Shown: positions 8,896 to 52,747 of the stretch, piece by piece
Position numbering within the stretch: position 1 is the stretch's first letter
How the letters are laid out: each line of letters opens with the position of its first letter
DNA from: Xylanibacter brevis ATCC 19188
GTDB lineage: Bacteria; Bacteroidota; Bacteroidia; Bacteroidales; Bacteroidaceae
DNA length: 64,000 nucleotides
Assembly (NCBI RefSeq): GCF_000621725.1
Contig: NZ_JHXM01000002.1
Span: forward strand, 1-64,000
Direction: 5' to 3'
Program-made: the position numbers and the translations under genes
The notes under the pieces: generated by a model
The model's input: only the letters and a program-made list of their open reading frames with translations
Told to the model about the DNA's origin: nothing
Databases searched by the model: none

Positions 8896-9174
8896 TGTTC
8901 TTTCTCTTTTGAGAGGTAAGAGAAAGAGTTTAAAACACCAGTAGTTTTACTTTTGATTTTGTTCCAGCCCCTGGAATGGTCTATTCCAGCCCCTGGATGG
9001 GGTGGATCTAGCCCCTAGAATGAGCGCATCCAGCCCCTGGATAGCGAACTTCCAGGGGCTGGATGCGGATCAAAACTTACCGAATTAGAAGTCAATACTG
9101 GCACTATTAGAAGTCAATACTGCCACTCTTAGGAAATGAAACGGCTGCTTTTGCGATGCGAAACCATAGCTTTT
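8896..9174. repeat. Array A: 15-bp dyad modules on a 22-bp period
   Basis: Fifteen-bp modules separated by 7-bp spacers start every 22 bp. The core run is TTCCAGCCCCTGGAA (8962), TTCCAGCCCCTGGAT (8984), ATCTAGCCCCTAGAA (9006), ATCCAGCCCCTGGAT (9028) and TTCCAGGGGCTGGAT (9050). It continues with AAAACTTACCGAATT (9072), AATACTGGCACTATT (9094), AATACTGCCACTCTT (9116), GAAACGGCTGCTTTT (9138) and GAAACCATAGCTTTT (9160). Before the core lie AGTAGTTTTACTTTT (8940) and a hairpin (CTTTCTCTT 8900 with AAGAGAAAG 8918). Spacers include TGGTCTA, GGGGTGG, TGAGCGC and AGCGAAC. It occupies the gap between two convergent genes; 9175-9231 shows nothing further. Confidence 0.85.
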
Positions 9175-9231
9175 ATGGGGTTAGGTAGCGGCGGTTATGC
9201 TCTGAAACCTACGAAACAGGCTACTTGTTGC

Positions 9232-10488
9232 TTATTTGAAACTCTGAAGCTCGTAGAGTGCATCCAAAGCCTTGCCCGTGTTGTTGTCGAAAAGACTAGC
9301 GTTATACCAATCTGTGTTCAGGTTGCCAGTGGCGCCCTTGGCATTGGCCTCGGCCCACCACCACGACAGACCATTCACCTGTGGATGACTCTTCAAAAGA
9401 GAAATCAAATCTGTGGTGTATTTCTTCTGTCCTTCGTTGGAGTAGGGGTAGGTGCTCTGCAAATCAGTTGTAGTGCCCGGTACGACCCATTTCCATGGAT
9501 AGCCGGTTTCCACAATCTGGATGTCTTTGCCATATTTCTTGTTTTCCAGCGTAGTAAGGGTGTTTTCTAAAACAGACAGAGCCCCATGGAAGTAGGGATA
9601 GTAACTCAGACCGATGATGTCGAAGTCAATCTGGGCCTCCTTCATGCGGTCGAAGTAATCTGTCAATACGTTGACCTTTGGCACGCGCTCGCTGTGTAGG
9701 ATGATCTTGGCCTGCGGACAAACCTCGCGACAGGCTTTGCTTGCCTCGCGCAGCAAGTCGAAGAAGCGATTCCAATTGTCAGCAGAACTCGTGGAATAAC
9801 AGCGGTTGGCCGAGGTACCCTTGGCACCCCATAACATGCCATAGCTAATCTCGTTGCCAGTCTGGATGAAGTCGGGTGCAGCACCATTGTCTTTCAGCTG
9901 TTGCAGACAGTCGCGGGTGTATTCATAGAGCTTTGTCTTCAGCTGGTCGTCGTTGAGCGATTGCCAGTCTTGTGGTGTCCACTGCTTGCTAGGGTCGGCA
10001 TAGGTGTCGCTATAGTGGAAGTCGAGCATGAACAGCATGCCGGCATCCTTGATGCGCTTTCCCAGTGTAGTCACGAAGTCGAGATCTTGGACCACCTCTT
10101 TCTTGTTGACATCGTCGGTGATGGCCTGGCCTTTTACCGGGTCAACGAACAGACGCACACGGATGGTGTTCCAACCTTGTTCCCTGACGAAAGACACCAG
10201 GTCGGTAATGGCATTGCCATTCTTGTCTTTGAACTGAGCCCCCTGCTCTTCGTATTTGGGTAGCAGGGATATGTCGCCACCAACGTACTTCAACGCTGGC
10301 ACATGCATGGTGATGCTGTCTATGGTATTAGTCTGGATATTGCCATTCAGCGTGGAGCCATTGTTGGAAAACGTCACCTGACTAGCTGTGCGCGTGTCGC
10401 CTTGAGTGCAGAGATAGAATGATTGTGCGTGCGATAGACCGACACTCGTCATGATAAAAAATAGAAGGGTTAATTTGCGTAGATTCAT
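9232..10488 (-). CDS. Arabinogalactan endo-beta-1,4-galactanase, GH53
   Basis: Secreted 418-aa GH53 enzyme cutting beta-1,4-galactan, the common side chain of rhamnogalacturonan I. A signal peptide (MNLRKLTLLFFIMTSVGLSHA) precedes about 75 residues without recognised domain, then the catalytic TIM barrel. Family motifs are clear: YVGGDISLLPKYEEQGAQF, GWNTIRVRLFVDP, DFHYSDTYADPSKQ, the acid/base Glu in IQTGNEISYGMLW, and the nucleophile Glu in IVETGYPW. Length suits the family. It has its own promoter at 10522-10530 and stands alone, convergent with the DUF5107-TPR gene. Its 3' side is the 22-bp-period array A. Confidence 0.93.
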   Translation of the reverse strand: MNLRKLTLLFFIMTSVGLSHAQSFYLCTQGDTRTASQVTFSNNGSTLNGNIQTNTIDSITMHVPALKYVGGDISLLPKYEEQGAQFKDKNGNAITDLVSFVREQGWNTIRVRLFVDPVKGQAITDDVNKKEVVQDLDFVTTLGKRIKDAGMLFMLDFHYSDTYADPSKQWTPQDWQSLNDDQLKTKLYEYTRDCLQQLKDNGAAPDFIQTGNEISYGMLWGAKGTSANRCYSTSSADNWNRFFDLLREASKACREVCPQAKIILHSERVPKVNVLTDYFDRMKEAQIDFDIIGLSYYPYFHGALSVLENTLTTLENKKYGKDIQIVETGYPWKWVVPGTTTDLQSTYPYSNEGQKKYTTDLISLLKSHPQVNGLSWWWAEANAKGATGNLNTDWYNASLFDNNTGKALDALYELQSFK

Positions 10489-10521
10489 TGTTAGTGTGTT
10501 TTAAGTGATTTTCTTCTGTTG

Positions 10522-10530
10522 GCAAAATTA
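10522..10530 (-). promoter_or_regulatory. -7 promoter element of GH53
   Basis: Minus-strand TAATTTTGC, an exact TAnnTTTGC match, 33 bp before the GH53 start codon. Confidence 0.7.
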
Positions 10531-10615
10531 CTATTTTTTTCAATATTCGAACGTAAAATATTGTTCTATTTTAGTTAAAACTCCTAAAATTTTTGCGGAT
10601 ACTTAATTTTTTTTC

Positions 10616-10624
10616 TACTTTTGC
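10616..10624 (+). promoter_or_regulatory. -7 promoter element of the histidine kinase-comEC unit
   Basis: TACTTTTGC lies only 9 bp before the ATG at 10634. Either the leader is very short or translation starts at the second ATG, 10646. Confidence 0.7.
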
Positions 10625-10633
10625 AATAACCTA

Positions 10634-11467
10634 ATGAGATCAACGATGAACTGGGAACTCATTTTTTACATATCACTCTTTGTTTATATCTTCGTCTATA
10701 TCATGGGACGAAGGAACTTGATGCGCACCATTTGGAAGCGCAATCATCAGTTGCGTATCGCACTCGACCGTGCAGAAGAATCCGACCGCATGAAGTCGGC
10801 CTTCATCCGCTCGATGAGTCATGAGATACGAACACCCCTCAATGCTATTAATGGTTTCTCGCAGGTGCTCTGTCTGAACGGCATGGACCTGAGCGAGCAT
10901 GAGCGTATGGAGCTGGAACAGCGCATATCGACGAATGTGGAGATCATCACCGTGATCATCAACGAACTGCTGGAGCTGGCCCACGGCGAGAGTATCGTGG
11001 TGGAACAGGAGCGCACGCCGATGCGCGTGAACGAGGTGTGCAAGAATGTGTTGAACCTGGCCAAGGCTTCCCAGCGTAAGGATCTGATGTTCTCGTTCGA
11101 GAGCGAGTTGCCCGACGACTACATCATCAATAGTAATCCGAACATCGTGACCGAGATATTGAATAAGGTGCTCAACAATGCCGTGAAGTTTACGGAGGAG
11201 GGTGGCATCACGTTGGGCTGCCGATTGCACGAGTTCAACCTCCAGATCACAGTCACCGACACGGGTATCGGCATACCAGTGGATAAGTTTGACGAGGTGT
11301 TCGAGAACTTTGTCAAGTTGAACGAATATAGCGAGGGCGTAGGACTGGGGCTGCCCATCAGTCGTCGTCTTGCCGAGGCGCTGCACGGTAAGTTGTATAT
11401 CGACCGTACGTATTACGAGGGCACACGCTTTGTCCTGGAGCTGCCCATCAAACCATTGGAAGAGTAA
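10634..11467 (+). CDS. Membrane-anchored sensor histidine kinase, no linked regulator
   Basis: Kinase of 277 aa (273 if the ATG at 10646 is used). One membrane segment (WELIFYISLFVYIFVYIM) leads almost directly into a HisKA domain with the phospho-accepting His63 in SMSHEIRTPLNAINGFSQVL. The HATPase_c domain shows the N box (NKVLNNAVKFTEEGG), the DTGIGIP G1 box and GVGLGLPISRRLAEALHG. There is essentially no sensor domain outside the membrane, no receiver domain, and no response regulator nearby. It shares its architecture and the phrase GFSQVL with the kinase at 23001. It is followed after 6 bp by the ComEC-like gene, apparently as one transcript. Signal and partner are unknown. Confidence 0.9.
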   Translation: MRSTMNWELIFYISLFVYIFVYIMGRRNLMRTIWKRNHQLRIALDRAEESDRMKSAFIRSMSHEIRTPLNAINGFSQVLCLNGMDLSEHERMELEQRISTNVEIITVIINELLELAHGESIVVEQERTPMRVNEVCKNVLNLAKASQRKDLMFSFESELPDDYIINSNPNIVTEILNKVLNNAVKFTEEGGITLGCRLHEFNLQITVTDTGIGIPVDKFDEVFENFVKLNEYSEGVGLGLPISRRLAEALHGKLYIDRTYYEGTRFVLELPIKPLEE

Positions 11468-11473
11468 ACACAC

Positions 11474-12526
11474 GTGAACAGCGGCATGAGGCGATTGCAT
11501 TTCACAGCACTATTGGGACTCACCATTTGTATGATGGTGGGTCTCATTTTGTATAATAGCTTCCACCCGGCCGACGAGCAGGCGCGGCACGCTTCACAGG
11601 CTCCTTCTGCGCACAAAATGATGGATAACTATCGTCACCAGATGGCTGCACGATATGCCACGCTGACCACCGATGAGGCCGACCGCAGTGTGCTGGCGGC
11701 GATGACACTGGGCGAAAAGAAAGGGGTGAGCCGCGAACTGAGGCGAATTTATGCAGTGACGGGAGCTGCTCATGTGCTGGCGCTGAGCGGATTGCATCTC
11801 AGCATCATCTATATGTTGCTGATGAGGCTGACGCTGAACAGACAGCGGAGCATATTGGTGCAGACGCTGATCCTCTCGATGGTGTGGGGCTACACGCTGC
11901 TCACGGGCCTGGCCACGAGCACGGTGCGTTCTGCTATCATGCTGACCGTCTATTCGCTGCTGTCGCTGGGTGGGCGGCGCGGCCAACCGCTCAACGTGTT
12001 GGCACTGACGGCCCTGATCCTGATGCTGGCCGACCGCACGGTGGTGTATGACATCGGTTTCCAGTTGTCGTTTGCAGCGGTATTGTCCATCATCTTCATC
12101 ACGTCTGTGGTCGATGAACTGGTGGATAAGAGCTGGATGATGGCGCATCCGCTTGTCAAATGGATGTGGGATTTGATGGTAGTGTCGGTAGCTGCGCAGA
12201 TAGGCGTGGCGCCGCTGTTGGCCTATCATTTCGGTACGTTCTCCCCCTATTTCCTGTTGACCAACCTCATAGCTATTCCTTCGGTCACCGTCATCCTGTA
12301 TCTGGCATTGATTTTCTGGGTGACACCCTTCGATGTGGTCGGTGAGCTGCTGGTGGGAGTGGTACATATATTAAATAAGGTACTTGCGCTGTTGGCACAA
12401 ATACCTTATTCAGTGATTGACAATCTGCATCCTTCAGTAGTGCAGACCATACTTATCTATGTGGGCTTTGGATGCTGGTATGCAGCCGTCCTAAAGCTCT
12501 TACAGAAGTCTCAAAATATCGTTTAG
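11474..12526 (+). CDS. ComEC/Rec2-type membrane protein, competence domain only
   Basis: Polytopic membrane protein of 350 aa corresponding to the central Competence domain of ComEC, the channel that moves single-stranded DNA across the inner membrane. Conserved signatures are GVSRELRRIYAVTGAAHVLALSGLHLSIIY, TGLATSTVRSAIM and YDIGFQLSFAAV. The N-terminal OB/DUF4131 region and the C-terminal metallo-beta-lactamase domain of full-length ComEC (usually 650-800 aa) are absent. The frame uses GTG at 11474; ATG at 11486 is an alternative giving MRRLHFTALLGL, a start just before TM1. It follows the kinase by 6 bp and its end overlaps the convergent rseP end by 27 bp. Whether it moves DNA is unknown. 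Confidence 0.85.
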   Translation: MNSGMRRLHFTALLGLTICMMVGLILYNSFHPADEQARHASQAPSAHKMMDNYRHQMAARYATLTTDEADRSVLAAMTLGEKKGVSRELRRIYAVTGAAHVLALSGLHLSIIYMLLMRLTLNRQRSILVQTLILSMVWGYTLLTGLATSTVRSAIMLTVYSLLSLGGRRGQPLNVLALTALILMLADRTVVYDIGFQLSFAAVLSIIFITSVVDELVDKSWMMAHPLVKWMWDLMVVSVAAQIGVAPLLAYHFGTFSPYFLLTNLIAIPSVTVILYLALIFWVTPFDVVGELLVGVVHILNKVLALLAQIPYSVIDNLHPSVVQTILIYVGFGCWYAAVLKLLQKSQNIV

Positions 12527-13867
12527 GTTGGCAACGATCATCAGCAGGATGACAATGCCGAAACCTACATACTCTGCGCGTATCATGAAGGCCTCAGAGG
12601 GCTTGCGGTGTGTGATCATCTCGTAGATGAGGAACAGCACGTGACCACCGTCGAGAGCTGGGATAGGCAGGATGTTCATGAAGGCCAGGATGATGCTGAG
12701 GAAAGCCGTCATCAGCCAGAACTGATGCCAGTTCCAAGTGGCAGGGAACAGGTTGCCAATGGTGCCGAAGCCGCCGAGCGACTTGACGCCGTCAGAGGTG
12801 AAGACATACTTCAGGTCGTCCACATACGAGGCAAGCACGTTCCAACCGTACTTTATACCAGCGGGGAAGCTCTCAAAGAAGCTATACTCGGTGGTGACAG
12901 GCTCGTAGATAGCCTTTGGCGAGAAGCCAAGTTTCATCTCGGAATTCAATGTGGTGCTGGCGCGGTACGTGCGGCCCTGCTGACGATAGACGAGGGTGAT
13001 AGCACGGGCAGCCAACTGCTCTTGTGGTGTCTGTGCGGCTTTGAACACATCGCTCATTCTGCCAATCTCATCTACAAACTGATTGTAGGAGTTGATGGCC
13101 TTGCCATTGATGCTCAGCAATACGGCACCTTTCTGAAGACCGGCGGCAGCAGCTGCTGTGTTGGGCAGTACGCTATCGACCACGGCAGGAAGATAGGCAC
13201 GACAGAAGATGGGTGCCGACTGAATCATCTCCAGCAGGTTCAGGTCGCCGGGCAGGGTGACGGTGGCAGGCTGTCCTTGGCGCAGCACGTCCACCTGCTT
13301 TGCTTCTGAGATAGAGCGGAACAGGTCGCTGCCAAACTTCTCGAAGGGTTGGCCGTCTGCAGCCAGCAGGACGTCGCCATCCTTGAAGCCAAGTTCGTGG
13401 GCCTGCTTGTTGAACTCCATGCCTTGTGTCATCTCGCTGACGGGTACATACGACTCGCCCCAAGTGTAGAGCACCATAGAATAGATGAACAGCGCCAGGA
13501 TGAAGTTGACCAGCACACCGCCAATCATGATGAACAGGCGCTGCCATGCTGGCTTAGCGCGAAACTCCCAGGGCTGCACGGGCTGCTTCATCTGCTCGGT
13601 GTCGAAACTCTCGTCGATCATACCGGCAATCTTGCAGTAGCCTCCCAGGGGAAGCCAACCGATGCCGTACTCGGTGTCGCTCTTCTTAGGCTTAAACTTG
13701 AGAAGGGCGCCTTTCCATTTGGCGATGCTGACGTCGAAAAAGAGGTAGAACTTCTCTACGCGTACGCCAAAGAGCTTAGAGAAGAAAAAGTGGCCTCCTT
13801 CGTGAAGGAGCACAAGCAGTCCGATGGCAAGCATGAACTGCAGGAGTTTTATGAGAAATACTTCCAT
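12500..13867 (-). CDS. rseP: Site-2 intramembrane zinc protease RseP
   Basis: Inner-membrane metalloprotease of 455 aa that cuts anti-sigma factors and signal-peptide remnants within the membrane. The zinc motif HEGGH lies at residues 22-26 inside TM1 and the second metal site is in NILPIPALDGGHVLF near the C-terminus. Two PDZ-like regions lie between, one around GMEFNKQAHELGFKDGDVLLAADGQ and one around AAAAAGLQKGAVLLSINGK. It is the last gene of the tsaB-DUF4290-murA-rimM-dxr-rseP run, 28 bp after dxr, an order found in Bacteroidota where dxr and rseP are neighbours. Its 3' end overlaps the convergent ComEC-like gene. Confidence 0.95.
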   Translation of the reverse strand: MEVFLIKLLQFMLAIGLLVLLHEGGHFFFSKLFGVRVEKFYLFFDVSIAKWKGALLKFKPKKSDTEYGIGWLPLGGYCKIAGMIDESFDTEQMKQPVQPWEFRAKPAWQRLFIMIGGVLVNFILALFIYSMVLYTWGESYVPVSEMTQGMEFNKQAHELGFKDGDVLLAADGQPFEKFGSDLFRSISEAKQVDVLRQGQPATVTLPGDLNLLEMIQSAPIFCRAYLPAVVDSVLPNTAAAAAGLQKGAVLLSINGKAINSYNQFVDEIGRMSDVFKAAQTPQEQLAARAITLVYRQQGRTYRASTTLNSEMKLGFSPKAIYEPVTTEYSFFESFPAGIKYGWNVLASYVDDLKYVFTSDGVKSLGGFGTIGNLFPATWNWHQFWLMTAFLSIILAFMNILPIPALDGGHVLFLIYEMITHRKPSEAFMIRAEYVGFGIVILLMIVANLNDILRLL

Positions 13868-15544: not shown

Positions 15545-16845
15545 ATGCGTTGAATCTTTGCGCCAAGGGCATTCAGGCGTCCTTCAATATTCTCGTAACC
15601 GCGGTCTATCTGCTCAATATTATCGATGCGGCTCACGCCTTTGGCGCTCATGGCAGCGATGAGCAGGGCGATACCTGCACGGATGTCGGGACTCGACATG
15701 CGGCCACCACGAAGCTGAAGCTTGCGGTCGTGACCCACGATCACCGCGCGATGGGGGTCGCAAAGAATGATCTGTGCGCCCATGTCGATGAGCTTATCGA
15801 CAAAGAACAGACGACTCTCAAACATCTTCTGGTGCACCAGCACAGAACCGCGTGCCTGTGTGGCCACGGTGATCAGCACCGAAAGGAGGTCGGGCGTCAG
15901 GCCAGGCCAGGGTGCATCGGCAAGTGTGAGGATGGTGCCGTCAATAAAAGACTGTATCTCGTAGTGACGCATGCGGGGGATGAAGAGGTCGTCGCCCTCT
16001 TCCTTCACCTTGATACCCATGCGACGGAACGTGTCGGGGATGATACCAAGGTCTTTGATAGAGACGTCCTTGATGCGTATGCCATCGCCAACCATGGCTG
16101 CCATACCAATGAATGAGCCTACCTCAATCATGTCGGGCAGGATGCGGTGGGTGGTGCCATGAAGGTGGTCAACGCCCTCGATGGTGAGCAGGTTGGATGC
16201 AATGCCGCTGATGCGTGCGCCCATGCTGTTCAGCATCTTGCAGAGCTGCTGCAGGTAGGGTTCGCATGCTGCGTTATAAATCGTTGTAGTACCTTTGGCC
16301 AGAACGGCAGCCATGACAATGTTGGCCGTACCGGTGACCGAAGCTTCGTCGAGCAACATATAGGTGCCTTTCAAGCGTGTGGCAGCTATCTCGTAAACGT
16401 TGCGTTCGGCTACGTGGTTGAACTGTGCTCCCAAGCGCTGGAAGCCCAGGAAGTGGGTGTCCAGACGGCGGCGGCCAATCTTGTCACCACCGGGTTTGGC
16501 GATGATGGCCTTACCCATACGTGCCAGCAGTGGTCCAATCATCATGACTGAGCCACGCAGTTGGGCACATTTCTGTACGAACTCGTCGCTCTCCAGGTAC
16601 TTCAGGTCCAGGTCGTCTGCCGTGAACGTATAGGTGGAGGGTTGGTCTTCCACAACCTTCACGCCGATATCCTTCAGCAACTGTATGAGATTCATCACGT
16701 CACGGATGTGAGGGATGTTGCTGATTGTGACAGGCTCGCTGGTGAGCAGAGACGCACAGATGACTTGCAGGGCCTCGTTCTTGGCACCTTGAGGAATAAT
16801 GGTTCCGCTGAGCAGATGACCTCCTTCTATTTGAAATGCTGACAT
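15541..16845 (-). CDS. murA: UDP-GlcNAc 1-carboxyvinyltransferase with Asp at the fosfomycin-target position
   Basis: Cytoplasmic enzyme of 434 aa that transfers enolpyruvate to UDP-GlcNAc, the first committed step of peptidoglycan synthesis. The N-terminus carries GGHLLSGTIIPQGAKNEAL (Lys and Asn of the active site). The flexible active-site loop reads KPGGDKIGRRRLDTHF, with Asp121 where E. coli MurA has Cys115, the residue alkylated by fosfomycin. Cys-to-Asp forms (mycobacteria, chlamydiae) are active and resistant. RGGRMSSPDIRAGIALLIAA lies near the C-terminus. It overlaps rimM by 4 bp and follows the DUF4290 gene by 14 bp. Confidence 0.96.
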   Translation of the reverse strand: MSAFQIEGGHLLSGTIIPQGAKNEALQVICASLLTSEPVTISNIPHIRDVMNLIQLLKDIGVKVVEDQPSTYTFTADDLDLKYLESDEFVQKCAQLRGSVMMIGPLLARMGKAIIAKPGGDKIGRRRLDTHFLGFQRLGAQFNHVAERNVYEIAATRLKGTYMLLDEASVTGTANIVMAAVLAKGTTTIYNAACEPYLQQLCKMLNSMGARISGIASNLLTIEGVDHLHGTTHRILPDMIEVGSFIGMAAMVGDGIRIKDVSIKDLGIIPDTFRRMGIKVKEEGDDLFIPRMRHYEIQSFIDGTILTLADAPWPGLTPDLLSVLITVATQARGSVLVHQKMFESRLFFVDKLIDMGAQIILCDPHRAVIVGHDRKLQLRGGRMSSPDIRAGIALLIAAMSAKGVSRIDNIEQIDRGYENIEGRLNALGAKIQRI

Positions 16846-21485: not shown

Positions 21486-21720
21486 CATAGTGGCAGTTTC
21501 AAATGGTAAAACTGCCACTATTGTTTTCCAATACTTCCCCTATTGCTTTCTAAAACTGCCAGTTTTGCCTTCCAATACTGCCAGTTTTGCCTCGATTCTA
21601 GAGTCTAGAATGGCGTAGTCTAGAGTTTAGAAGTCAGTCGTCTAGTATCTAGAATCCCCTTTTCCAGACTCTAGCACAAAATCAAAACCAAAACTATTGC
21701 TCGATAAAAGTCCTTCTCTT
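21486..21720. repeat. Array C: 15-bp dyad modules on a 22-bp period
   Basis: Modules start every 22 bp with 7-bp spacers: CATAGTGGCAGTTTC (21486), AAAACTGCCACTATT (21508), AATACTTCCCCTATT (21530), AAAACTGCCAGTTTT (21552), AATACTGCCAGTTTT (21574), TTCTAGAGTCTAGAA (21596), GTCTAGAGTTTAGAA (21618), GTCTAGTATCTAGAA (21640), TTCCAGACTCTAGCA (21662), AAAACCAAAACTATT (21684) and AAAAGTCCTTCTCTT (21706). Modules 21552 and 21596 are perfect 7+1+7 palindromes. Spacers include GTTTTCC, GCCTTCC, TGGCGTA and GTCAGTC. It lies between two convergent GH43 genes; 21434-21485 shows nothing clear. Confidence 0.88.
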
Positions 21721-32875: not shown

Positions 32876-32910
32876 CACCCCCGGTCCCTCTCCGAGGGGA
32901 GAGGGGAGTC
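32876..32910. repeat. GC-rich dispersed palindrome, copy 2
   Basis: CCCTCTCC (32886-32893) pairs with GGAGAGGG (32898-32905), preceded by CCTCACCCCCGGT. Same family as 8826, 37059, 39198 and 40592. Confidence 0.65.
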
Positions 32911-37156: not shown

Positions 37157-39538
37157 TTACTGAATCTTTATTTCAGCAGACTGCAGGAAAGGTGCGGTGG
37201 CCGTGATGACGGTCTCTGCACCTTTTGCTTTGTGGAAGTAGCCCACCAGGCGGCCGTTGAGCACGCGCAGACGGTTCTTCTGCTGACGCGCGTTCACGGT
37301 GGGATCCATCATGTCGCCATTCTCCAGTCCCAGCAGTTGCGCTCCGTGCAGGTGGATGGTCACCTCGTTGTCGGCCTGGCGCACCACGTTGCCTTGCTCA
37401 TCGACCACCTCCACGAAGAGGTGAGCCACCGAGTCGGTGCTGAGACGCAGCGCATAGGGCGCCTTCGTCTCGGGCAGTTCGTAGCTAGCACCGTTTGAAG
37501 CCTCGCAGCGCAGTGTGCCGCCCTTGTAGTTGATCTCCCAGAAAGGCATGCCGGTCTGCTCGTCGCGCTGCATCTGGCAGTCGGCGGGCTTGCCGTCTAT
37601 CAGCAGTTGGGCGGTGGCAGCATTGGTGAAGCACACCACGCGCTGCTTGCCTCGATTGCGATTGCCGCGGTGCAGCGGGTACATCTGGATGAAGCAGACG
37701 GGCTTGTCGCTCCACAGCGCAGCTCGATACCAGCCGCCGGGCTTGCGCTGACCAGCCAGGTCGAGCAGTCCGGCCGACGAGCCGCGGGCGGGCCAGGGAC
37801 CGCTCTCGCCCAGATAGTCGATGCCCGTCCACAGGAACTGTCCGAAGATGTGGTCGTTGTCGCGCACTGCACGCCATGCATCCATGTCGTGACGGTTCTC
37901 CGAACCATAGATCACGCGCTGCGGATAGCGCTGGTGGTCCACGTCGTAGCGACTCTCGGTGTAGTTGTAGCCCACCACGTCGATGGCGCTGGGGTAGGCC
38001 GTCTCGTTAGACATCACCACACCGGCCAGTGCACCTGTGGTGGGGCGTGAGCGGTCAATGTCTTTCACCACCTTGGCCAGTCGCTGGGCGATGCAGCCAA
38101 TGCGCTCGGCGTTGGGCTGCTCGGGCTTATAGCCACCATAGGCCGGCTGCGTGAAGTCAGTGCCGTTGCCGTTGAGCACCGGGTGAGAGTAGGGGTCGTT
38201 GGGGTAGTCCACCTCGTTGCCTATAGACCACATGAACACCGAGGGGTGACAGCGGTCGCGGCGCACCATGTCGGCCACGTCGCGCTCTATCCACTCCTCG
38301 AAGTAGGTGTAGGTGCCCTGGAAACCGGGCACGCCCTTGTTCCAGCCCTTCAGCCACTTGCGCTTGGGGAACTCCCATTCGTCGCTGGCCTCGTCCATCA
38401 CCAGCATGCCCAGCTCGTCGCACAGGTCGTAGAGCTCGGGAGCGTGCGGGTTATGGCTCATGCGGATGGCGTTCACGCCGATGGCCTTCAGCTCCACGAT
38501 GCGGCGGTGCCACACCTCCTTAGGCACGGCGGTGCCCAGCACGCCGGCATCGTCGTGCAGGCAGACGCCCTTCACCTTCATCCACTGGCCATTCAGGGCA
38601 AAGCCCTTGTTGGGTGAGAAGTCCAGCGTGCGCATTCCAGCCTTCACGGTGGAGGCGTCCAGCTGTTCTAAGTTGGAGGATAGGGTGGTGGTGAGTGTGT
38701 AGAGATAGGGGTCGTCCAGGTTCCAGCGGTGTGGATTGTTGACGTTCAGTCTGACGGTCTTTTTCTCTTTGGTCTGTATGGCGGTAGAGGTCTGTGCCAC
38801 CACCTTGCCGCTGGCGTCCAGCAGTCTTACGTCGGCCTTTAGCGGCAGCTTGGCCGACTGGTCGGCACGTTCATCGGTGGTCTCCACATCCACCTCTACC
38901 ACAGCCTTGCGCTTGTTGATAGACACCAGTCGGTAGGCCGTGCCCCACTGTGCCAGATGCACCTCGGGGGCTTCGATGAGCCACACGTTGCGGTTGATGC
39001 CCGAGCCCGTGTACCAGCGCGAGTCGTTCTCCTGGTCGTGGCTCACGCGCACGGCAATCATGTTCTGTCCGTCTGCGCGCAGATAGGGCGTCAGGTCATA
39101 CATAAACGAGGCGAAGCCCGACGGACGGCTGCCCAGCAAGTGTCCGTTCAGGTACACCTCCGAGTAGTTGTAGGCTCCTTCGAAGTAGATAAAAAGCCTC
39201 CCCCTTGTCCCCTCCGAGGGGAGAGTGAGTGCTTTCCTATACCAGCCGATGCCGCCGGGCAGATAGCCCTGGCACGAACCCTTGTCGGGCGACATGGGCT
39301 GTTCGATGCTCCAGTCGTGGGGCAGTGACAGGCGGCGCCATGCGGTGTCGTCGAAGCTGGCCTCCTTCATGGAGGGTTGTTCATAGATGTGCTGAGTGCT
39401 GTCTATGCGCAGAAAGCGCCAGTCGTCGTTCAGCAGACGGGCATTGCCAAACGACACCTGTGCCCACAGGGCGAGTGGCGACAGCAGGCATGCTGCCATC
39501 AGCGACAGCAGCTTGTTGCAGAGAGTAGTTTGTTTCAT
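37157..39538 (-). CDS. GH2 beta-galactosidase-type enzyme, secreted
   Basis: Enzyme of 793 aa with signal peptide (LLSLMAACLLSPLALWAQ). An N-terminal sugar-binding domain (LLNDDWRFLR, RLSLPHDWSIEQPM), an immunoglobulin-like domain, and the TIM barrel follow in the usual GH2 order. The acid/base Glu is in FMWSIGNEVDYPND and the nucleophile Glu in VIYGSENRHDMDAW; GQFLWTGIDYLGE is typical of Bacteroidota GH2 beta-galactosidases. Beta-glucuronidase activity is not excluded. Residues around LTLPSEGTRGRLF are encoded by a GC-rich dispersed repeat (39198-39229). The gene follows the nitroreductase by 34 bp on the same strand, perhaps as one transcript. Confidence 0.9.
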   Translation of the reverse strand: MKQTTLCNKLLSLMAACLLSPLALWAQVSFGNARLLNDDWRFLRIDSTQHIYEQPSMKEASFDDTAWRRLSLPHDWSIEQPMSPDKGSCQGYLPGGIGWYRKALTLPSEGTRGRLFIYFEGAYNYSEVYLNGHLLGSRPSGFASFMYDLTPYLRADGQNMIAVRVSHDQENDSRWYTGSGINRNVWLIEAPEVHLAQWGTAYRLVSINKRKAVVEVDVETTDERADQSAKLPLKADVRLLDASGKVVAQTSTAIQTKEKKTVRLNVNNPHRWNLDDPYLYTLTTTLSSNLEQLDASTVKAGMRTLDFSPNKGFALNGQWMKVKGVCLHDDAGVLGTAVPKEVWHRRIVELKAIGVNAIRMSHNPHAPELYDLCDELGMLVMDEASDEWEFPKRKWLKGWNKGVPGFQGTYTYFEEWIERDVADMVRRDRCHPSVFMWSIGNEVDYPNDPYSHPVLNGNGTDFTQPAYGGYKPEQPNAERIGCIAQRLAKVVKDIDRSRPTTGALAGVVMSNETAYPSAIDVVGYNYTESRYDVDHQRYPQRVIYGSENRHDMDAWRAVRDNDHIFGQFLWTGIDYLGESGPWPARGSSAGLLDLAGQRKPGGWYRAALWSDKPVCFIQMYPLHRGNRNRGKQRVVCFTNAATAQLLIDGKPADCQMQRDEQTGMPFWEINYKGGTLRCEASNGASYELPETKAPYALRLSTDSVAHLFVEVVDEQGNVVRQADNEVTIHLHGAQLLGLENGDMMDPTVNARQQKNRLRVLNGRLVGYFHKAKGAETVITATAPFLQSAEIKIQ
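39198..39229. repeat. GC-rich dispersed palindrome, copy 4, within the GH2 coding region
   Basis: CTCCCCCTTGTCCCCTCC followed by GAGGGGAGAGTGAG. It resembles the intergenic copies at 8826, 32876, 37058 and 40592, but here it is translated in frame as part of the N-terminal domain. Confidence 0.65.
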
Positions 39539-40429: not shown

Positions 40430-40473
40430 CGCTGCTGTTGTTGTCGATGAGCTCATCGACAACAACAGCAGCG
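40430..40473. repeat. 44-bp perfect palindrome without loop
   Basis: The left half is C followed by GCTGCTGTTGTTG and TCGATGAG; the right half is its exact complement, with the centre between 40451 and 40452. All 22 base pairs match. Confidence 0.95.
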
Positions 40474-40815: not shown

Positions 40816-41050
40816 AACAAGGGCAGTTTTCACGTGCAGAAGTGGCAGTTTTATGGCGCAGAAGTGGCGGCTTTAGATTGTAGTACTAAAACTATTGTTT
40901 CGGGGCTAGCCCCTGGAAAGGAGAAATCCAGGGGCTGGATGAGCCGCATCTAGGGGCTGCATCTGGCGCATCCAGGGGCTAGATGAGGAGCAAAAGTTAC
41001 TGTTTTGCATGATAAAAGTAACTGTTTTAGGAGACAATAGCGTAACTATT
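40816..41050. repeat. Array B: 15-bp modules on a 22-bp period
   Basis: Modules with 7-bp spacers: AACAAGGGCAGTTTT (40816), AGAAGTGGCAGTTTT (40838), AGAAGTGGCGGCTTT (40860), AGTACTAAAACTATT (40882), GGCTAGCCCCTGGAA (40904), ATCCAGGGGCTGGAT (40926), ATCTAGGGGCTGCAT (40948), ATCCAGGGGCTAGAT (40970), AAAAGTTACTGTTTT (40992), AAAAGTAACTGTTTT (41014) and AATAGCGTAACTATT (41036). Spacers include CACGTGC, ATGGCGC, AGGAGAA, GAGCCGC and CTGGCGC. The first module overlaps the right end of the inverted-repeat element. Unlike arrays A and C it lies upstream of a gene. Confidence 0.88.
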
Positions 41051-41078
41051 GCGAGGGAAAACAAAAGAAAAACAAACA

Positions 41079-41201
41079 AGTTTGCCTTGTTCTTCTCTCG
41101 TTTTTTCGTAACTTTGCGACAAAAGTCGCGAAGTTACTGCGCCTCGGAAGAAAAAACAAATGAGTTTGTTTTGTTCTTCTCTCGACTTTTCGTAACTTTG
41201 C
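41079..41201 (+). promoter_or_regulatory. Tandemly duplicated promoter before the RNR-like gene
   Basis: A 39-base block at 41079-41117 recurs at 41163-41201 with 35 identical bases. Each block ends in TAACTTTGC (41109-41117 and 41193-41201) and has TTG 19 bases upstream (41087 and 41171), the spacing of a -33/-7 Bacteroidota promoter. The second copy is 13 bp before the start codon. Confidence 0.75.
41108..41137. promoter_or_regulatory. Inverted repeat overlapping the first promoter copy
   Basis: GTAACTTTGCGAC (41108-41120) and GTCGCGAAGTTAC (41125-41137) form a 13-bp inverted repeat with one mismatch and a 4-base loop. The left arm contains the -7 element of promoter copy 1, so it could be an operator or a leader hairpin. 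Confidence 0.6.
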
Positions 41202-41214
41202 ACCATAATTAAAG

Positions 41215-41916
41215 ATGTGTAACAGAATGGAGAATCAGAAGACCTTATCGAACGATGAGCTGCTGCAAGTTCTGTTTGCTGAAGAAGGCGGCGAACAGCA
41301 GTGGATGGGCAACATCCTGAAGCAGGAAAAGAACCAGAAAGATGCCTTGAACGAGGCACAGCTGAAACGCGTGCTGGGCTATCTGCATGCTTGTTCGCAG
41401 AAGGCAGACCTCTCGCAACTGCACCCACAGGTGACCGAAGTGCGCCCGCAGGTGTTGGAGTGCGACGTGGTGCGCTTTCAAAACAACAAGGAGAAATGGG
41501 TGGCGCTGGTTGGACTGCTGAACGGCTATCCCTACGAGATATTCACAGGTCTGCAAGACGACGATGAGGGCATCATGCTGCCAAAGTCGGTGACCAAAGG
41601 ACGCATCGTGAAACAGGTGAACGCCGACGGTACCAAGCGCTATGACTTCCAGTTCACCAACACGCGCGGCTATAAGATCACCGTGGAGGGACTGTCGGAG
41701 CGCTTCAACCCCGAATACTGGAACTATGCCAAGCTGATCTCGGGCGTTCTGCGCTATCGCATGCCTATCGAACACGTCATCAAACTGGTGGGCTCGCTGC
41801 AGCTGCAGTCGGAGAGCATCAACACGTGGAAGAACGGTGTGGAGCGCGCTCTGAAGAAATATGCTCCCGGCAGTGCTGATAGCGACGAACAGACCGCTGA
41901 CGAGGCTGCCCTATGA
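41215..41916 (+). CDS. Stand-alone protein like the C-terminal part of class II ribonucleotide reductase
   Basis: Protein of 233 aa (229 if ATG 41227 is used), without signal peptide. Residues about 85-225 (EKWVALVGLLNGYPYEIFTG, GRIVKQVNADGTKRYDFQFT, FNPEYWNYAKLISGVLRYRM, ESINTWKNGVERALKKY) look like the C-terminal region of B12-dependent ribonucleotide reductase NrdJ (TSCPD-type region). The catalytic barrel with its radical and thiol cysteines is absent; only two or three cysteines occur in the whole protein. It may be a detached domain or a regulator. It heads a run with folB (4-bp overlap), amidase and MCE genes and has a duplicated promoter. The homology call is from memory of the family pattern. 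Confidence 0.7.
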   Translation: MCNRMENQKTLSNDELLQVLFAEEGGEQQWMGNILKQEKNQKDALNEAQLKRVLGYLHACSQKADLSQLHPQVTEVRPQVLECDVVRFQNNKEKWVALVGLLNGYPYEIFTGLQDDDEGIMLPKSVTKGRIVKQVNADGTKRYDFQFTNTRGYKITVEGLSERFNPEYWNYAKLISGVLRYRMPIEHVIKLVGSLQLQSESINTWKNGVERALKKYAPGSADSDEQTADEAAL

Positions 41917-48414: not shown

Positions 48415-51400
48415 TTAATGATAATTTTCTTTCCGTTTCTGATGTATATGCCCTTCTTTGTGGGCTTGTCAATAGGCATGCCGCCCAGGTTGAATAGTTG
48501 GCCATGGGCATCGTTTTGCTGCAGGGTCTTGACAGCAGTGGCTTCTATGACGCGCAGCTTACCCTCCTTTTTCAGCAGCTCTGACGTTTCCCATTCAAGA
48601 CCGCTAGGCAGGGTGGGCAGGTTAATGATGACAGACGACGAGGTGGCCAGTCGGCCCACTTTCCAGAGTATGACCTCTTCACCAGCTTTAGGACTGACAC
48701 CGCTCCACGTCACATTGATCTCTTCTGTAATAGAGAGCGTGCCCACGGCTTCAATCTTGGTGTTTGTGCTGTTGCCGCGCGCTCTGGTCACCTTCATGTT
48801 GACCTTCTTCACCGAGTAGACGCCGGCACCAGAGAGTGTCGCATTATCGTCGATAGCACCGATGGTGATGTTTTTGCCATTGTTGTTGAAGACACCGTGA
48901 ATGGTGGCCTTGGCCAGACCATAGCTGTTGTCCCACATGATGGAAGGATCGTAAGAGCCCGTTTTCAGATTTTGGAAGTTGATGGTGCCTTCAAACTGGC
49001 TCCAGTCGCCTTGCATCTGTGAACGTGTGTTGGTGACATTGACCGTCAGCTTGCCCTTACCCGTCAGTTTGCCTTTGTAGTAGCAGCGAGAGTCGAGTGT
49101 CCATGTGGCAGTCTTACCCTCGGGCACGTTGACGTTGGCCCTGTTGGTGGAGTAGCTATACATGTTGTCGGGGTCTTTCAGTGTGCCTCCGTTCAGTGTG
49201 ATGTTGGTGGGGTAGGTGTGTACGTCGCCAATCTCGCCACCATGAACAGTGCCCTGGTTCACCACGAGTTCTTCATACTGAGCGTTTCCATGAACCTGCA
49301 GCGTGCCATTACCAGTCTTGACCAACTGCTTGCCAGAACCGCTGATGGCGCCATTGTGTGTCAGTGTTATGCCGTTGTCCACGTTGATCGTTCCAACAGA
49401 AGTAATGGCGAAGGGGTGCGATGTTGACATGGTCTTTAGGATGTTCAATGTACCATTGTTAAACGTCAGCTTGTTCTTGGCGCTGCCCAGCGCAGCATAG
49501 TCCACACCGTCGTTGTTGGCCAGCGAAGCTACTGAAAGCCTTCCACCGTTCAGGTAGATAGCGCCCGTGAATTTGTTGGTGTTGGTGATGTTCACCTGAC
49601 CCTCGCCCTGAAGGGTTATCGAGGTGTTGTCGATGATGCTGCCTTCACCACTCAGCGTGAAGTTCTTGCTGTTGTTGGCAAAGACGATGCTGGCTGGTGC
49701 AACGACACCTTGGATGGTGATGTCTGACTTGCTAGCCTGGTCGTTGAAGGTCACCTCATCGCCAGTTACAAACATGATACTCTCGTTGTCGCGCTTGAAG
49801 TTTTCAGTCTCTCCGAAGTCCCATATGCCGTCTTCACCGCCGTCCCAGATGATGCTGGTAGCATCGCGAAGTTTGATGATGACTAGATAGAGCTTACCTT
49901 CTTCATAAGCCAAAGCTACCTTTTTCTTTTCAAATCCCTCCAAGACGATATCGTTGATGTTGCCTTCGATGGTTGTGATGTCGCCCAACAGATAGTTGCC
50001 GGCAGGTAGAGCGTCGATATCGGCGTTGTTGAATTGGAACACTGGTGCTGCATACTCTGGGCCATATTGCCAGTCTTTCTTCTCAATGACGAGTTTCTGG
50101 GCATTGACCTTGTCTGCAGTTCCCGTCTTGGCAATGTCGAAGACCACGCGCGAACCGAAGCCCAGAGCCAGTGTGGTGGTGGTGAGGTTGCCCGTGGCGT
50201 TCTTGCCGCCAGGATAGATGGTGGCATTATAGTCGGCCTTGATGCCGCCATTGAACGTGCCGCCATTACTGATCAGGTTGGTGTGGCGGTTCAGCCATAC
50301 GCTACTTGACTGCATGGTACCGTCAAACTGCAGTGTGCCGGCCCATACATCGGTGTTGCCGGTGTAGGTCTCGGTGACGTTGGGCAGCACCAGTGTGCCG
50401 TCGCCCTGCTTCACCAGGCGCATACTGCCTGTGAAGGCACCGCCAGTCAGCGTGTGGGTAAAGTAGCTGCGGGTGATATTATTATTGTTGTCGTGCCCCT
50501 GCACCCAGCTTGGCGCATTGTCAAAGAAGATGTAGGGCGATGCACCATCGGCCACGCTGACGGTCATGTCGTTGGTCTCGGCCATCATCACCTGCTGGTC
50601 GTTCTGAGCCGTACCGATGCTACCGCCATTCTGAATCTCAGTGCGGTTGGTGTTGGTCAGAGCGGGTGGGGCAGCGGTGATGCCTTCCAGTTCGCCCAGG
50701 AAGTAGCTGACGTGGGGTGGCTGGTTGTAACCGTTCATCTGCCACACCATGGCGTTGCGGTACTGCATGTCGTGCCACAGCGTGTAGTTGCGCCACGTGG
50801 TGGGAATGGTGGTGGTGTAGATACGGATCTTATTGTCGGCCGTGCGGGCAATCACCTCCTCGCGCCAGTCGCCAAACAGGTCGCCCTGATAGCAGGGGGT
50901 GCCCTTGGTGTCGTTGTTGGTCAGCGAGCCGGCTAGCGTCTCCAGCACGCCCTTGTTATACTTATAGATAGCGATGGCCGTGTTCTTACCGTTCGAGTAG
51001 TTCAGTCCCTCGTCGCAGAGGTCGCCATCCCAGTAGATGCGGAAGTTGTCGGGTATGCCCCCTTTGTTCATGCCACTGATGTAGTCGGCGGTGACACAGC
51101 TGATGGGATTGTCGTAGCCCGAGAAGCCCATAGCACCGGGATAGTCGTTAGAGAAGTTGCCGGCTATGCAGCGACCGTCGTCCTTGCTGCTGACAAAGCG
51201 GTGGTATATTTTCGCTGTGGTGGCGTCGCGGTAGTTGTTGCCGGGGTTGTCTTCCAGGCAGGCAAAGATTTCATGACCATGCTTGTAGGGGTTGAAGTCG
51301 CTGTGATGCTGAGCATCGCCATGCCCCAGCCCCGTTGTCGACAGGCCCTTGCCGTTGTCGTCGATCACCATCGAGCCGAAGCATATCTCGTCGCGTCCGT

Positions 51401-52523
51401 CCCAGTCAACATCGGCAATGGCGTAGTTGTGGTAGCCGTTGCCATACCAGGGCGAGCTGCTGTCGTTGCAGTTCCAGCGCCAGCGTACAGAGAGCTCGTG
51501 AGTGGCAGGATTAACGTCCAGTGCAATCATCTTATGACGGGTGTAGATGCCTCGCGCCAGGAAGATGCTGGGCTTGCGACCGTCCAGATAGGGCGCACCG
51601 AAAAAGTGCTTTGACGAGCGGTGGCCGTAGCCGTCGCCCCACGCCTTCTCCAGGTCGGTCTCGCCATCCTCCAGTCGTTTCAGGGGGTATTCCATGATTT
51701 GATAGGGCACACCGGTCTCACCGTTCAGATAGACCAGATACTCGGCACCGTCGTGCATAAACCAGTTGGTACCGCCGCCCGTAGCTGCGCGGTAGTTCTT
51801 GGTCTGGTCGCCAACAACGTGGGGAGTACCGTACACATCGTAGATGGTGGTGCCGTCGGCAGCACGCATGATGACCTCCGCCTTGCCGTCGCCGTCCCAG
51901 TCGTAGGCAGCAATGTTCTGCTCGTTGTTTTGGAAGTCGCCCATATTAGGACCGCAGTTGATGTACCACAGACGGGTGCCGTCCATTTTCAGACACTCAA
52001 AGAGGCTATACTCCTTGGTGTCCACGCCGTCAATCTTCGGACCGTTCTTGGGGTACGACTGCGAGATCTCGCTCTGGTTGTCGAATTTCATCAGCATCTC
52101 CACCTGTCCGTCGCCATCAACGTCGGCGCAGCATACATCGTTGGGCACATACACAGACTTCAGACCGCTGTGTGTGGGAGTAATCTCCTTGTAGTTGCTG
52201 GCCCATACGTCGGCCACCTTGCTGCCCGTGGCTTCTTCTACGCCGCGAACCACCGCCTTGACCGTATATTTACTGTCGGTGGTTCCGGCAGCATCCTTAA
52301 AGTTTGAAACCTCCAGGTTCGAGGCCACCTGTGTGCCGTTGCGATAGAGGTTGTACTTCACATCGTAGTACTCCTCGCCGAGAATACGCCAGGAGCAGAA
52401 CACACCGTCGGCCGTCTTGATAGCGGTCAGTCCACGATCCAGCGCATCGGTGCGGCGCTGTGCAAAGCCGTTGGTAGCCGTTGTTAGCAACAGTGCTGAT
52501 AGGAATAAGAGTTTTTTCTTCAT
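48411..52523 (-). CDS. PL11 rhamnogalacturonan lyase fused to autotransporter-type beta repeats
   Basis: Exported 1370-aa protein, about twice the usual PL11 length. Signal peptide LLFLSALLLTTATNGFA. Residues about 22-625 are a PL11 propeller (ALDRGLTAIKTADGVFCSWR, CCADVDGDGQVEMLMKFDNQ, AAYDWDGDGKAEVIMRAADG, FGDWREEVIART). Residues about 640-1300 are repeats of the passenger-associated beta-helix type (GSMRLVKQGDGTLVLPNVTE, SGSGKQLVKTGNGTLQVHGN). The C-terminus is FNLGGMPIDKPTKKGIYIRN then GKKIIIK, matching the motif in neighbouring proteins. The beta-helix may hold the enzyme off the cell surface or bind substrate (inference). Its own promoter is at 52559-52567. It overlaps the smaller PL11 gene. 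Confidence 0.88.
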   Translation of the reverse strand: MKKKLLFLSALLLTTATNGFAQRRTDALDRGLTAIKTADGVFCSWRILGEEYYDVKYNLYRNGTQVASNLEVSNFKDAAGTTDSKYTVKAVVRGVEEATGSKVADVWASNYKEITPTHSGLKSVYVPNDVCCADVDGDGQVEMLMKFDNQSEISQSYPKNGPKIDGVDTKEYSLFECLKMDGTRLWYINCGPNMGDFQNNEQNIAAYDWDGDGKAEVIMRAADGTTIYDVYGTPHVVGDQTKNYRAATGGGTNWFMHDGAEYLVYLNGETGVPYQIMEYPLKRLEDGETDLEKAWGDGYGHRSSKHFFGAPYLDGRKPSIFLARGIYTRHKMIALDVNPATHELSVRWRWNCNDSSSPWYGNGYHNYAIADVDWDGRDEICFGSMVIDDNGKGLSTTGLGHGDAQHHSDFNPYKHGHEIFACLEDNPGNNYRDATTAKIYHRFVSSKDDGRCIAGNFSNDYPGAMGFSGYDNPISCVTADYISGMNKGGIPDNFRIYWDGDLCDEGLNYSNGKNTAIAIYKYNKGVLETLAGSLTNNDTKGTPCYQGDLFGDWREEVIARTADNKIRIYTTTIPTTWRNYTLWHDMQYRNAMVWQMNGYNQPPHVSYFLGELEGITAAPPALTNTNRTEIQNGGSIGTAQNDQQVMMAETNDMTVSVADGASPYIFFDNAPSWVQGHDNNNNITRSYFTHTLTGGAFTGSMRLVKQGDGTLVLPNVTETYTGNTDVWAGTLQFDGTMQSSSVWLNRHTNLISNGGTFNGGIKADYNATIYPGGKNATGNLTTTTLALGFGSRVVFDIAKTGTADKVNAQKLVIEKKDWQYGPEYAAPVFQFNNADIDALPAGNYLLGDITTIEGNINDIVLEGFEKKKVALAYEEGKLYLVIIKLRDATSIIWDGGEDGIWDFGETENFKRDNESIMFVTGDEVTFNDQASKSDITIQGVVAPASIVFANNSKNFTLSGEGSIIDNTSITLQGEGQVNITNTNKFTGAIYLNGGRLSVASLANNDGVDYAALGSAKNKLTFNNGTLNILKTMSTSHPFAITSVGTINVDNGITLTHNGAISGSGKQLVKTGNGTLQVHGNAQYEELVVNQGTVHGGEIGDVHTYPTNITLNGGTLKDPDNMYSYSTNRANVNVPEGKTATWTLDSRCYYKGKLTGKGKLTVNVTNTRSQMQGDWSQFEGTINFQNLKTGSYDPSIMWDNSYGLAKATIHGVFNNNGKNITIGAIDDNATLSGAGVYSVKKVNMKVTRARGNSTNTKIEAVGTLSITEEINVTWSGVSPKAGEEVILWKVGRLATSSSVIINLPTLPSGLEWETSELLKKEGKLRVIEATAVKTLQQNDAHGQLFNLGGMPIDKPTKKGIYIRNGKKIIIK

Positions 52524-52558
52524 ATTGTTTTAGTATTGTTATCGTTATTAGTTCGTGG

Positions 52559-52567
52559 GCAAAGATA
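52559..52567 (-). promoter_or_regulatory. -7 promoter element of the PL11 pair
   Basis: Minus-strand TATCTTTGC, exact consensus, 35 bp before the larger PL11 start, so the lyases can be expressed apart from the susCD genes. Confidence 0.75.
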
Positions 52568-52666
52568 TGAAAATTCTGTTAAACACAACAGAAATAATTG
52601 GTTTTTAACTTGTGGAATTTGAGAGAAAAGAGGTTTAACCGTAGTAAACCACATGTGCGATTTTGG

Positions 52667-52747
52667 TACCACCACTTGGTAGCGTGATTACCGACGCTTG
52701 GTAGCCTCAGTACCAACGCCTGGTACGACCAGTACCAAAACGTGGTA
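52667..52747. repeat. Array D: 15-bp TACC-GGTA modules on a 22-bp period
   Basis: Four modules with 7-bp spacers: TACCACCACTTGGTA (52667), TACCGACGCTTGGTA (52689), TACCAACGCCTGGTA (52711) and TACCAAAACGTGGTA (52733). Spacers are GCGTGAT, GCCTCAG and CGACCAG. Arms TACC and GGTA are constant and the centre varies. A partial TGGTACTGAG follows at 52755. The array lies between the terminator of the 706-aa gene and the PL11 promoter; the rest of 52524-52854 holds only those signals. Confidence 0.85.

What the first reader, a model, noticed from the sequence alone, without database searches (positions are those of the whole stretch)
8896..52747. A family of 22-bp-period palindromic arrays as a possible undescribed genome element
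Four arrays in 64 kb share module length (15), spacer length (7), odd-length dyads and class order, yet differ in sequence. I do not recognise a named system with this plan; REP/BIME elements, CRISPR arrays and simple VNTRs all differ in unit size or in what is conserved. Possible roles are nucleoid-protein docking, transcription-end buffering, or an unknown expanding repeat maintained by a dedicated protein. No obvious dedicated gene lies next to all four arrays.
Basis: partly seen in the sequence, partly recalled or inferred. Interest (0 to 1): 0.93.

Follow-up and report, generated by a model that had tools for sequence, protein, structure and literature searches.

The report
Evenly spaced palindrome arrays in Prevotella
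In this Prevotella-type genome, short arrays of mirror-image DNA sites, exactly 22 letters apart and usually five of the main kind in a row, sit mostly between genes about every 28,000 letters, and likely serve as docking platforms for a still unknown DNA-binding protein that would help organise the chromosome.

Summary
In 845 kb of the window's genome (24%) I count 30 arrays; at the strict threshold only periods 22 and 33 (22+11, same arrays) occur. The main class (TCYAGnnnCTRGA) comes in blocks of exactly five in 41 of 51 cases; the eight arrays called as 5+5 are all offset by 33 bp and pair one CCC/GGG-centred with one ACT/AGT-centred block. Left and right arms vary independently, so they behave as half-sites for a protein dimer, not as hairpins. 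Spacing along the chromosome is regular (mean 27.8 kb, CV 0.49; random intergenic placement 0.91-0.97, 0 of 4,000 draws as regular). Other species of the genus have arrays of the same 22-bp grammar with unrelated letters; none was found in 294 kb from other families. One described repeat, PINSR of P. intermedia (188 bp, about 180 copies), is very probably a member, published as a sequence and not as a grammar. Best reading: docking arrays for a cooperatively binding dimer with a chromosome-organising role (inferred; partner unknown). Strongest rival: a non-autonomous mobile element that avoids its own copies; one relative carries at least 19 similar dispersed copies.

The parts
8940..9130 (.). 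Array 1: A block of five modules at 8962, 8984, 9006, 9028, 9050 (centres CCC x4, GGG), then B modules at 9072, 9094, 9116; weak module at 8940
   Evidence: Register listing; tandem repeats; orthologous array in Prevotella sp. RUI122 with the same CCCCG order and one 22-bp module fewer
21486..21698 (.). Array 2: B modules at 21486, 21508, 21530, 21552, 21574, then A modules at 21596, 21618, 21640, 21662 (centres AGT, AGT, TAT, ACT), B-like module at 21684
   Evidence: Register listing; convergent intergenic gap
40816..41050 (.). Array 3: B modules at 40816, 40838, 40860, 40882, A modules at 40904, 40926, 40948, 40970 (CCC, GGG x3), B modules at 40992, 41014, 41036
   Evidence: Register listing; as query it gives 63 matching pieces at E up to 1 in the own genome, itself included
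52667..52747 (.). Array 4: four class C modules (TACCnnnnnnnGGTA) at 52667, 52689, 52711, 52733
   Evidence: Register listing; second class C array at C3:5632 of the same genome

Best explanation
Each array is a set of 15-bp dyads at exact 22-bp spacing, most often five of the main class, that likely works as a docking platform for a cooperatively binding dimeric DNA-binding protein, which would tie down or organise the chromosome at roughly 28-kb intervals. Shown: the register, the five-module blocks, the independence of the two arms in the columns tested, the mostly intergenic position without preference for gene orientation, and the even spacing in two species with unrelated arm letters. 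Inferred: that a dimer binds each dyad; that neighbouring dimers touch because 22 bp, and the 11- and 33-bp offsets, put all half-sites on about the same face of the helix; and that the purpose is chromosome organisation. The centre triplets (CCC/GGG or ACT/AGT) would mark two flavours of site, used alone (5) or together (5+5, 4+4). The protein is not identified. The arms differ between species, so protein and sites would have to co-evolve. Copies also spread: a subfamily has dispersed in one close relative, so the elements are probably mobile and then kept where spacing suits.
For: At the strict threshold 20 arrays at period 22 in 845 kb of the own genome, 7 at 33, 0 at the 21 other periods; at a looser threshold 12 and 6 arrays at period 22 in two contig stretches against 0-1 at most other periods, and 0 in 10 shuffles of C2. 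Block size 5 in 41 of 51 A blocks (4 in 6, 8 in 4; three 3-module runs that overlap octets dropped); all 8 arrays called 5+5 are offset by 33 bp with one block of each centre type (a ninth, L031, was called 4+5 at 55 bp); the 4 octets are 4+4 of the two types. Arms independent within arrays: A positions 4/12 paired 187 of 268 against 192+-5 by permutation; B positions 3/13 65 of 139 against 64+-4; B positions 5/11 94 of 139 against 90+-3, P 0.16 (another set, A 132 of 186 against 130.8+-4.3). Even spacing: CV 0.49 over 26 intervals against 0.91-0.97+-0.14-0.15 for random intergenic gaps, 0 of 4,000 at each of three gap cut-offs; contigs C1, C2 and C3 each regular, P 0.003, 0.011, 0.025. G026, with other arms: CV 0.46 or 0.39 against 0.84, P 0.015 or 0.003 by threshold. 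Arms change less than spacers between orthologous arrays: 133 of 779 against 207 of 546.
Against: No partner gene found. Arms are not clearly more conserved than the 150-bp flanks (0.171 against 0.186). Contig C4 (two intervals) is not regular, CV 1.09. The truncated lists of G157 (40 places) and G124 (38 places on C1) do not show regular spacing (CV 0.89 and 1.15), and G124 has nine neighbouring pairs 3.4-7 kb apart. In G026 at least five different arm sequences occur in one genome, which would need several proteins. Even spacing alone fits an element that avoids its own copies as well.
Confidence: 0.4

Rival explanations
1. The arrays are non-autonomous mobile elements whose dyads bind a transposase or integrase acting in trans; the even spacing would come from target immunity (avoidance of insertion near an existing copy), not from a host function.
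For: Nineteen fetched G157 loci share a scattered copy (blast pieces of 277-388 bp, 87-96% identical to one copy), and 22 places share its query signature; one related copy in the own genome. Four G157 arrays map with both flanks to own sequence without an array call. By eye, arrays in G026 share flanks with exchanged cores. Multi-copy spread of the PINSR-like repeat in G124. Target immunity of Mu and Tn7 is recalled, not tested.
Against: The copies have ragged ends (20 aligned). Of three filled sites aligned with the own genome only one (L124) gave a clear contrast, and it showed a partly duplicated flank of some 85 bp, not a short target duplication. No transposase family recurs beside arrays. 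Seven of 21 distinct G157 arrays examined have an own array between both matching flanks (own sequence only partly held), with module exchange inside. The usual count of five is not explained.
Confidence: 0.3
2. Local regulation: each array is a multi-site operator or transcription-end element for its neighbouring genes.
For: Nearly all lie between genes (28 of 30; congeners 20 of 22). BrickBuilt segments, in another genus, are reported to have promoter activity (PMC4596501, abstract).
Against: No clear preference for convergent, divergent or tandem gaps (4, 3, 10 of 17 arrays, against 23, 33, 78 of 134 gaps of 50 bp or more); neighbours are unrelated; local operators would not be expected to be evenly spaced.
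Confidence: 0.12
3. RNA hairpins or DNA cruciforms: the palindromes act by folding on themselves.
For: The typical module is a dyad with 5-7 pairs of 7; array 1 and its RUI122 ortholog show changes on both arms in 3 of 5 A modules.
Against: Pairing is no better than chance pairing of arms within arrays in the three column pairs tested; T-G and C-A mismatches are about equally common (37 and 44; 28 and 26), so no G-U preference on either strand; no Rfam family at gathering scores in the window.
Confidence: 0.05
4. Neutral minisatellites made by replication slippage.
For: Whole 22-bp modules are gained and lost between relatives (8 against 4-5 A modules in three pairs; one module in array 1); some G026 arrays have conserved spacers.
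Against: Block size five in 41 of 51; spacers differ between modules while arms stay; the same period in unrelated sequences; even spacing.
Confidence: 0.05

Closest known systems
[quoted passage not shown] 2015, PMC4755523)
   Same: Intergenic, non-coding, 177-184 copies per genome, about three quarters of places shared between two strains, one copy reported downstream of tnaA. In the two-replicon genome G124 I find a repeat 170 bp downstream of tnaA whose conserved part runs 186 bp from TGTAAA to TTTACA, at 40 places scored of 288 first-look candidates, and which is itself a 22-bp dyad array.
   Different: Described as one 188-bp sequence of one clade; no internal 22-bp grammar in the parts that I read. 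The window's arrays share the plan, not that sequence.
BrickBuilt MITE of Porphyromonas gingivalis (Klein et al. 2015, PMC4596501)
   Same: Intergenic, multi-copy, tandem short units in a bacterium of the same phylum.
   Different: 23-nt direct repeats with no spacers, leader and tail with inverted-repeat ends (abstract); no word beginning with palindrom in the text held.
REP/BIME elements (recalled)
   Same: Many small intergenic palindromic units, possible nucleoid or gyrase binding.
   Different: Units of other size, one sequence family per genome, no fixed 22-bp register.
parC/ParR centromere arrays and plasmid iterons of 22 bp (recalled)
   Same: Small fixed number of protein sites phased with the helix.
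   Different: One or two per replicon and next to their own gene; here about one per 28 kb with no shared gene beside.

Membership tests
PINSR | 188-bp consensus sequence | not testable with these tools
   Consensus is in a figure and primers in a supplement that I could not read; the G124 repeat is conserved over 186 bp
PINSR | Intergenic, about 180 copies, copy downstream of tnaA, two-chromosome host | tested here: inconclusive
   For G124: copy 170 bp downstream of tnaA, 40 places scored of 288 candidates, two contigs of 1.97 and 0.71 Mb; organism unnamed. The window genome has no tnaA match at E up to 1e-60, so its arrays are not tested by this feature
PINSR | No terminal inverted repeats | tested here: inconclusive
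   G124 copies begin TGTAAA and end TTTACA in consensus, a weak inverted end
BrickBuilt / MITE | Direct 23-nt units without spacer, terminal inverted repeats | tested here: not met
   Period 22 with variable spacers; no constant ends in 20 aligned copies of the G157 subfamily
CRISPR array | Near-identical repeats of over 20 nt with spacers of similar length, next to cas genes (recalled definition) | tested here: not met
   15-nt modules with variable centres and 7-nt spacers; no neighbour family shared by more than 4 of 45 arrays; no search with cas models was made
Hairpin (RNA or cruciform) element | Compensatory pairing of arms | tested here: not met
   Arms independent in three column pairs
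Target-immune transposon | Constant ends and target-site duplication | tested here: inconclusive
   Ragged ends in 20 copies aligned (19 of G157, 1 own); three filled sites aligned with own sequence, one clear, no short duplication seen
Nucleoid-protein docking array | Specific binding protein | not testable with these tools
   No wet assay; no shared gene beside the arrays

The most novel reading that the evidence does not exclude
A genus-wide class of chromosome-spacing elements whose grammar is conserved (22-bp helical phase, blocks of five dimer sites in the studied lineage, even spacing along the chromosome) while the letters are exchanged from species to species and even inside one genome, served by a fast-evolving family of array-binding proteins: a chromosome-organising system with no described counterpart.
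Probability: 0.3. Interest if true: 0.92.

Novelty: new variant of a known kind. Interest (0 to 1): 0.74.

Why it matters
Prevotella dominates many gut and rumen communities (recalled), yet little is known of how its chromosome is folded (recalled). A dispersed element with a strict helical phase, a usual site number of five and regular spacing is a concrete handle: one affinity pull-down with one array could name the protein. It would also turn an orphan repeat of an oral species (PINSR) into one case of a general plan. If the mobile reading is right, it would be a natural record of target avoidance written along chromosomes.

Tried and rejected
A covariance model of module trimers was planned and dropped because MAFFT gapped the windows. 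Rfam at gathering scores: nothing in the window. A shared neighbour gene: none in more than 4 of 45 arrays. Clean insertion ends in G157: not found; the L114 and L117 alignments were not informative. Regularity of the partial G157 and G124 lists: CV 0.89 and 1.15; both lists are cut at 40 scored candidates (of 94 and 288), so I count them as against or uninformative. The tnaA route found one PINSR-like case; 22-bp calls in 4 of the 30 fetched loci, with other periods giving up to 3 at that loose threshold. Congener calls in G045 and G059 overlap open reading frames and are doubtful; six of 13 sampled congeners gave none, five of them with 20 kb read and G024 with 120 kb. Other genera of the same family could not be read. 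The 21-kb locus of the 70%-identical relative L035 has no array call. One ortholog pair (L020/L040) aligns poorly in part and was kept in the counts. Two scripts stopped with an error: rerun; after its results were printed; saving failed. Papers: PMC4596501 abstract, outline and passages; PMC4755523 passages and section 3.4 in full; PMC5771137 passages only; the rest as search listings. REP/BIME, CRISPR features, iterons, ParR/parC, Mu and Tn7 immunity are recalled.

Full report
Observation. The four arrays are real. In exact 22-bp register the window holds modules of 15 bp with 7-bp spacers at 8940-9130, 21486-21698, 40816-41050 and 52667-52747. Four-module dyad scores of 19-22 of 24 compare with a maximum of 18 in 100 block-wise shuffles of the window. 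By my reading of the register, arrays 1 to 3 use the same two classes: A (WTCYAG-nnn-CTRGAW) and B (AAWAGTGSCACTWTT and relatives), run together without loss of register; array 4 is class C (TACC...GGTA).

Genome scale. A DNA search with array 3 gives 63 matching pieces at E up to 1 in the own genome, itself included; all 28 loci examined from it (24 distinct places) contain a four-module 22-bp dyad run scoring at least 18 of 24. In 845 kb of the own genome (contigs C1 and C2 complete, C3 to 200 kb, C4 to 80 kb) a sequence-free detector plus an A-motif detector find 30 arrays. At the strict threshold the count per period is 20 at 22 bp, 7 at 33 bp (22+11, the same arrays) and 0 at the 21 other periods from 18 to 40. 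By extrapolation the genome would hold about 120. A simple ORF caller puts 28 of 30 in gaps between genes. Among 17 arrays with two neighbours 4 are in convergent, 3 in divergent and 10 in tandem gaps, against 23, 33 and 78 of 134 gaps of at least 50 bp. No neighbour family recurs beside more than 4 of 45 arrays.

Anatomy. In 45 own arrays (30 from the contigs and 15 further loci found by similarity to other arrays, so biased to class A), A modules come in blocks of five in 41 of 51 blocks, four in 6 and eight in 4; three 3-module runs in L014 and L020 that overlap octets in another phase were dropped; 3 of the 45 arrays have no A block. Eight arrays were called as two five-module blocks, all with 33 bp from the last module of one to the first of the next; one block has CCC/GGG centres and the other ACT/AGT. 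A ninth (L031) was called 4+5 with 55 bp, as if one module had decayed. The four octets are four of each kind. Both orientations of the centre are equally common (CCC 67, GGG 65, ACT 60, AGT 59).

Half-sites, not hairpins. If the palindromes worked by pairing, the two arms of a module should co-vary. In the columns tested they do not: within arrays A positions 4 and 12 pair in 187 of 268 modules against 192+-5 by permutation; B positions 3/13 in 65 of 139 against 64+-4; B positions 5/11 in 94 of 139 against 90+-3, P 0.16 (132 of 186 against 130.8+-4.3). T-G and C-A mismatches are about equal (37 and 44). This is what independent half-sites of a dimer would give. I infer a dimeric DNA-binding protein; the 22-bp period, and the 11- and 33-bp offsets, would set half-sites on about the same helical face.

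Evolution. The closest named record, Prevotella sp. RUI122 (98% identical protein; 88% identical DNA over 20 kb), has array 1 at the same place with the same order of centres, one 22-bp module fewer, and changes on both arms in 3 of 5 A modules. In G157, a complete congener, 7 of 21 distinct arrays examined have an own array between both matching flanks, and 4 map with both flanks to own sequence without an array call; the own genome was only partly held. Over eight ortholog pairs, substitutions are 133 of 779 in arms, 207 of 546 in spacers, 70 of 234 in centres and 422 of 2,273 in 150-bp flanks; arms thus change less than spacers and centres but hardly less than flanks. Block types are exchanged, and three or four modules are lost or gained as a unit.

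Mobility. Nineteen fetched G157 loci carry a scattered copy of one subfamily (blast pieces of 277-388 bp, 87-96% identical to one copy), and 22 places share its query signature. Twenty copies (19 of G157, one own) were aligned and their ends are ragged. Three filled places were aligned with the own genome; only one gave a clear contrast, with a partly duplicated flank and no short target duplication. So copies spread, by a route that I could not identify.

Even spacing. The 26 intervals on own contigs have mean 27.8 kb and CV 0.49. Random choice among intergenic gaps of at least 150, 250 or 300 bp gives 0.91-0.97 with SD about 0.15; 0 of 4,000 draws were as regular at each cut-off. C1, C2 and C3 are each regular (P 0.003, 0.011, 0.025); C4, with two intervals, is not. 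Congener G026, with unrelated arms, shows CV 0.46 (11 arrays, P 0.015) or 0.39 (12 arrays, P 0.003) over 190 kb. The partial lists for G157 and G124 do not show it (CV 0.89 and 1.15), and G124 has nine neighbouring pairs 3.4-7 kb apart; those lists are truncated.

Genus-wide grammar. In 790 kb from 13 other genomes of the genus, strict calls per period are 17 at 22 bp, 10 at 33, 2 at 21, 1 at 20 and 0 elsewhere; 13 of the 17 come from G026. Seven of 13 genomes have at least one call at the looser threshold, two of them (G045, G059) doubtful because they overlap reading frames; six have none. Arms are unrelated: AAAAG..CTTTT (G010), CAGAAA..TTTCTG (G038), AAAGTT..AACTTT (G028), TATACA..TGTATA, TATCAT..GTGATA and others (G026). 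In 294 kb from other families of the order there are 0 at 22 bp (1 at 23); in 50 kb of E. coli 0. Other genera of the same family were not read. The sequence itself is narrow: with array 3 as query only the own genome of 100 matches at E up to 0.001, and with the L014 array 3 of 398 genus members, own included; both searches scored few candidates per genome.

Prior description. Naito et al. 2015 describe PINSR, a 188-bp intergenic repeat with 177 and 184 copies in two P. intermedia strains, also present downstream of tnaA and in three related species (section 3.4 read). I searched tnaA in the genus (65 of 398 genomes at E up to 1e-60). Genome G124 (two contigs, 1.97 and 0.71 Mb) has a 22-bp array 170 bp downstream of tnaA that recurs at 40 places scored of 288 first-look candidates. 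In 30 copies aligned the conserved part runs 186 bp from TGTAAA to TTTACA and has a 22-bp dyad register. I found no print description of the 22-bp grammar in searches of the open-access library.

Verdict. The finding is real and larger than stated. I commit to docking arrays for a cooperatively binding dimer with a chromosome-organising role (0.4); a mobile element with avoidance of its own copies is the main rival (0.3). The two may both hold.

Noticed in passing
G157 loci L070, L072, L076-L080, L082, L084-L094; own L031 (C13:106837): A subfamily of at least 19 similar copies scattered in one relative, with ragged ends; by eye, eight aligned right ends lie at or near CTGAGCC, and many left sides carry a CCCTCCC..GGGAGGG stretch.
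   Followed up: partly
window 40430-40473 and 15783-15803: A perfect 44-bp palindrome around TGTCGATGAGCTCATCGACAA upstream of array 3 (checked), with a 95% similar 21-bp core at 15783.
   Followed up: no
window 8829-8854, 32878-32903, 39200-39225: A dispersed G+C-rich repeat of the CCTCYCCGAGGGGAG type (73-81% alike); similar stretches adjoin many of the G157 copies.
   Followed up: no
window 41068-41124 and 41152-41208: A 57-bp stretch repeated 84 bp apart (84% identical) just before the gene at 41215; it may hold twin promoters.
   Followed up: no
window 352-413: Two 31-bp direct repeats overlapping the end of the minus-strand reading frame 372-3140.
   Followed up: no
G026 C1, about 136356 and 207871 (L191, L144): By eye, arrays with different arms (TTGGAC and TATACA types) share flanking sequence such as CTTATAGGA, as if the core had been exchanged inside one element.
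   Followed up: partly
G124 copies L225-L254: The PINSR-like repeat starts with TGTAAA and ends with TTTACA, a weak inverted end, although the paper states that PINSR has none.
   Followed up: no
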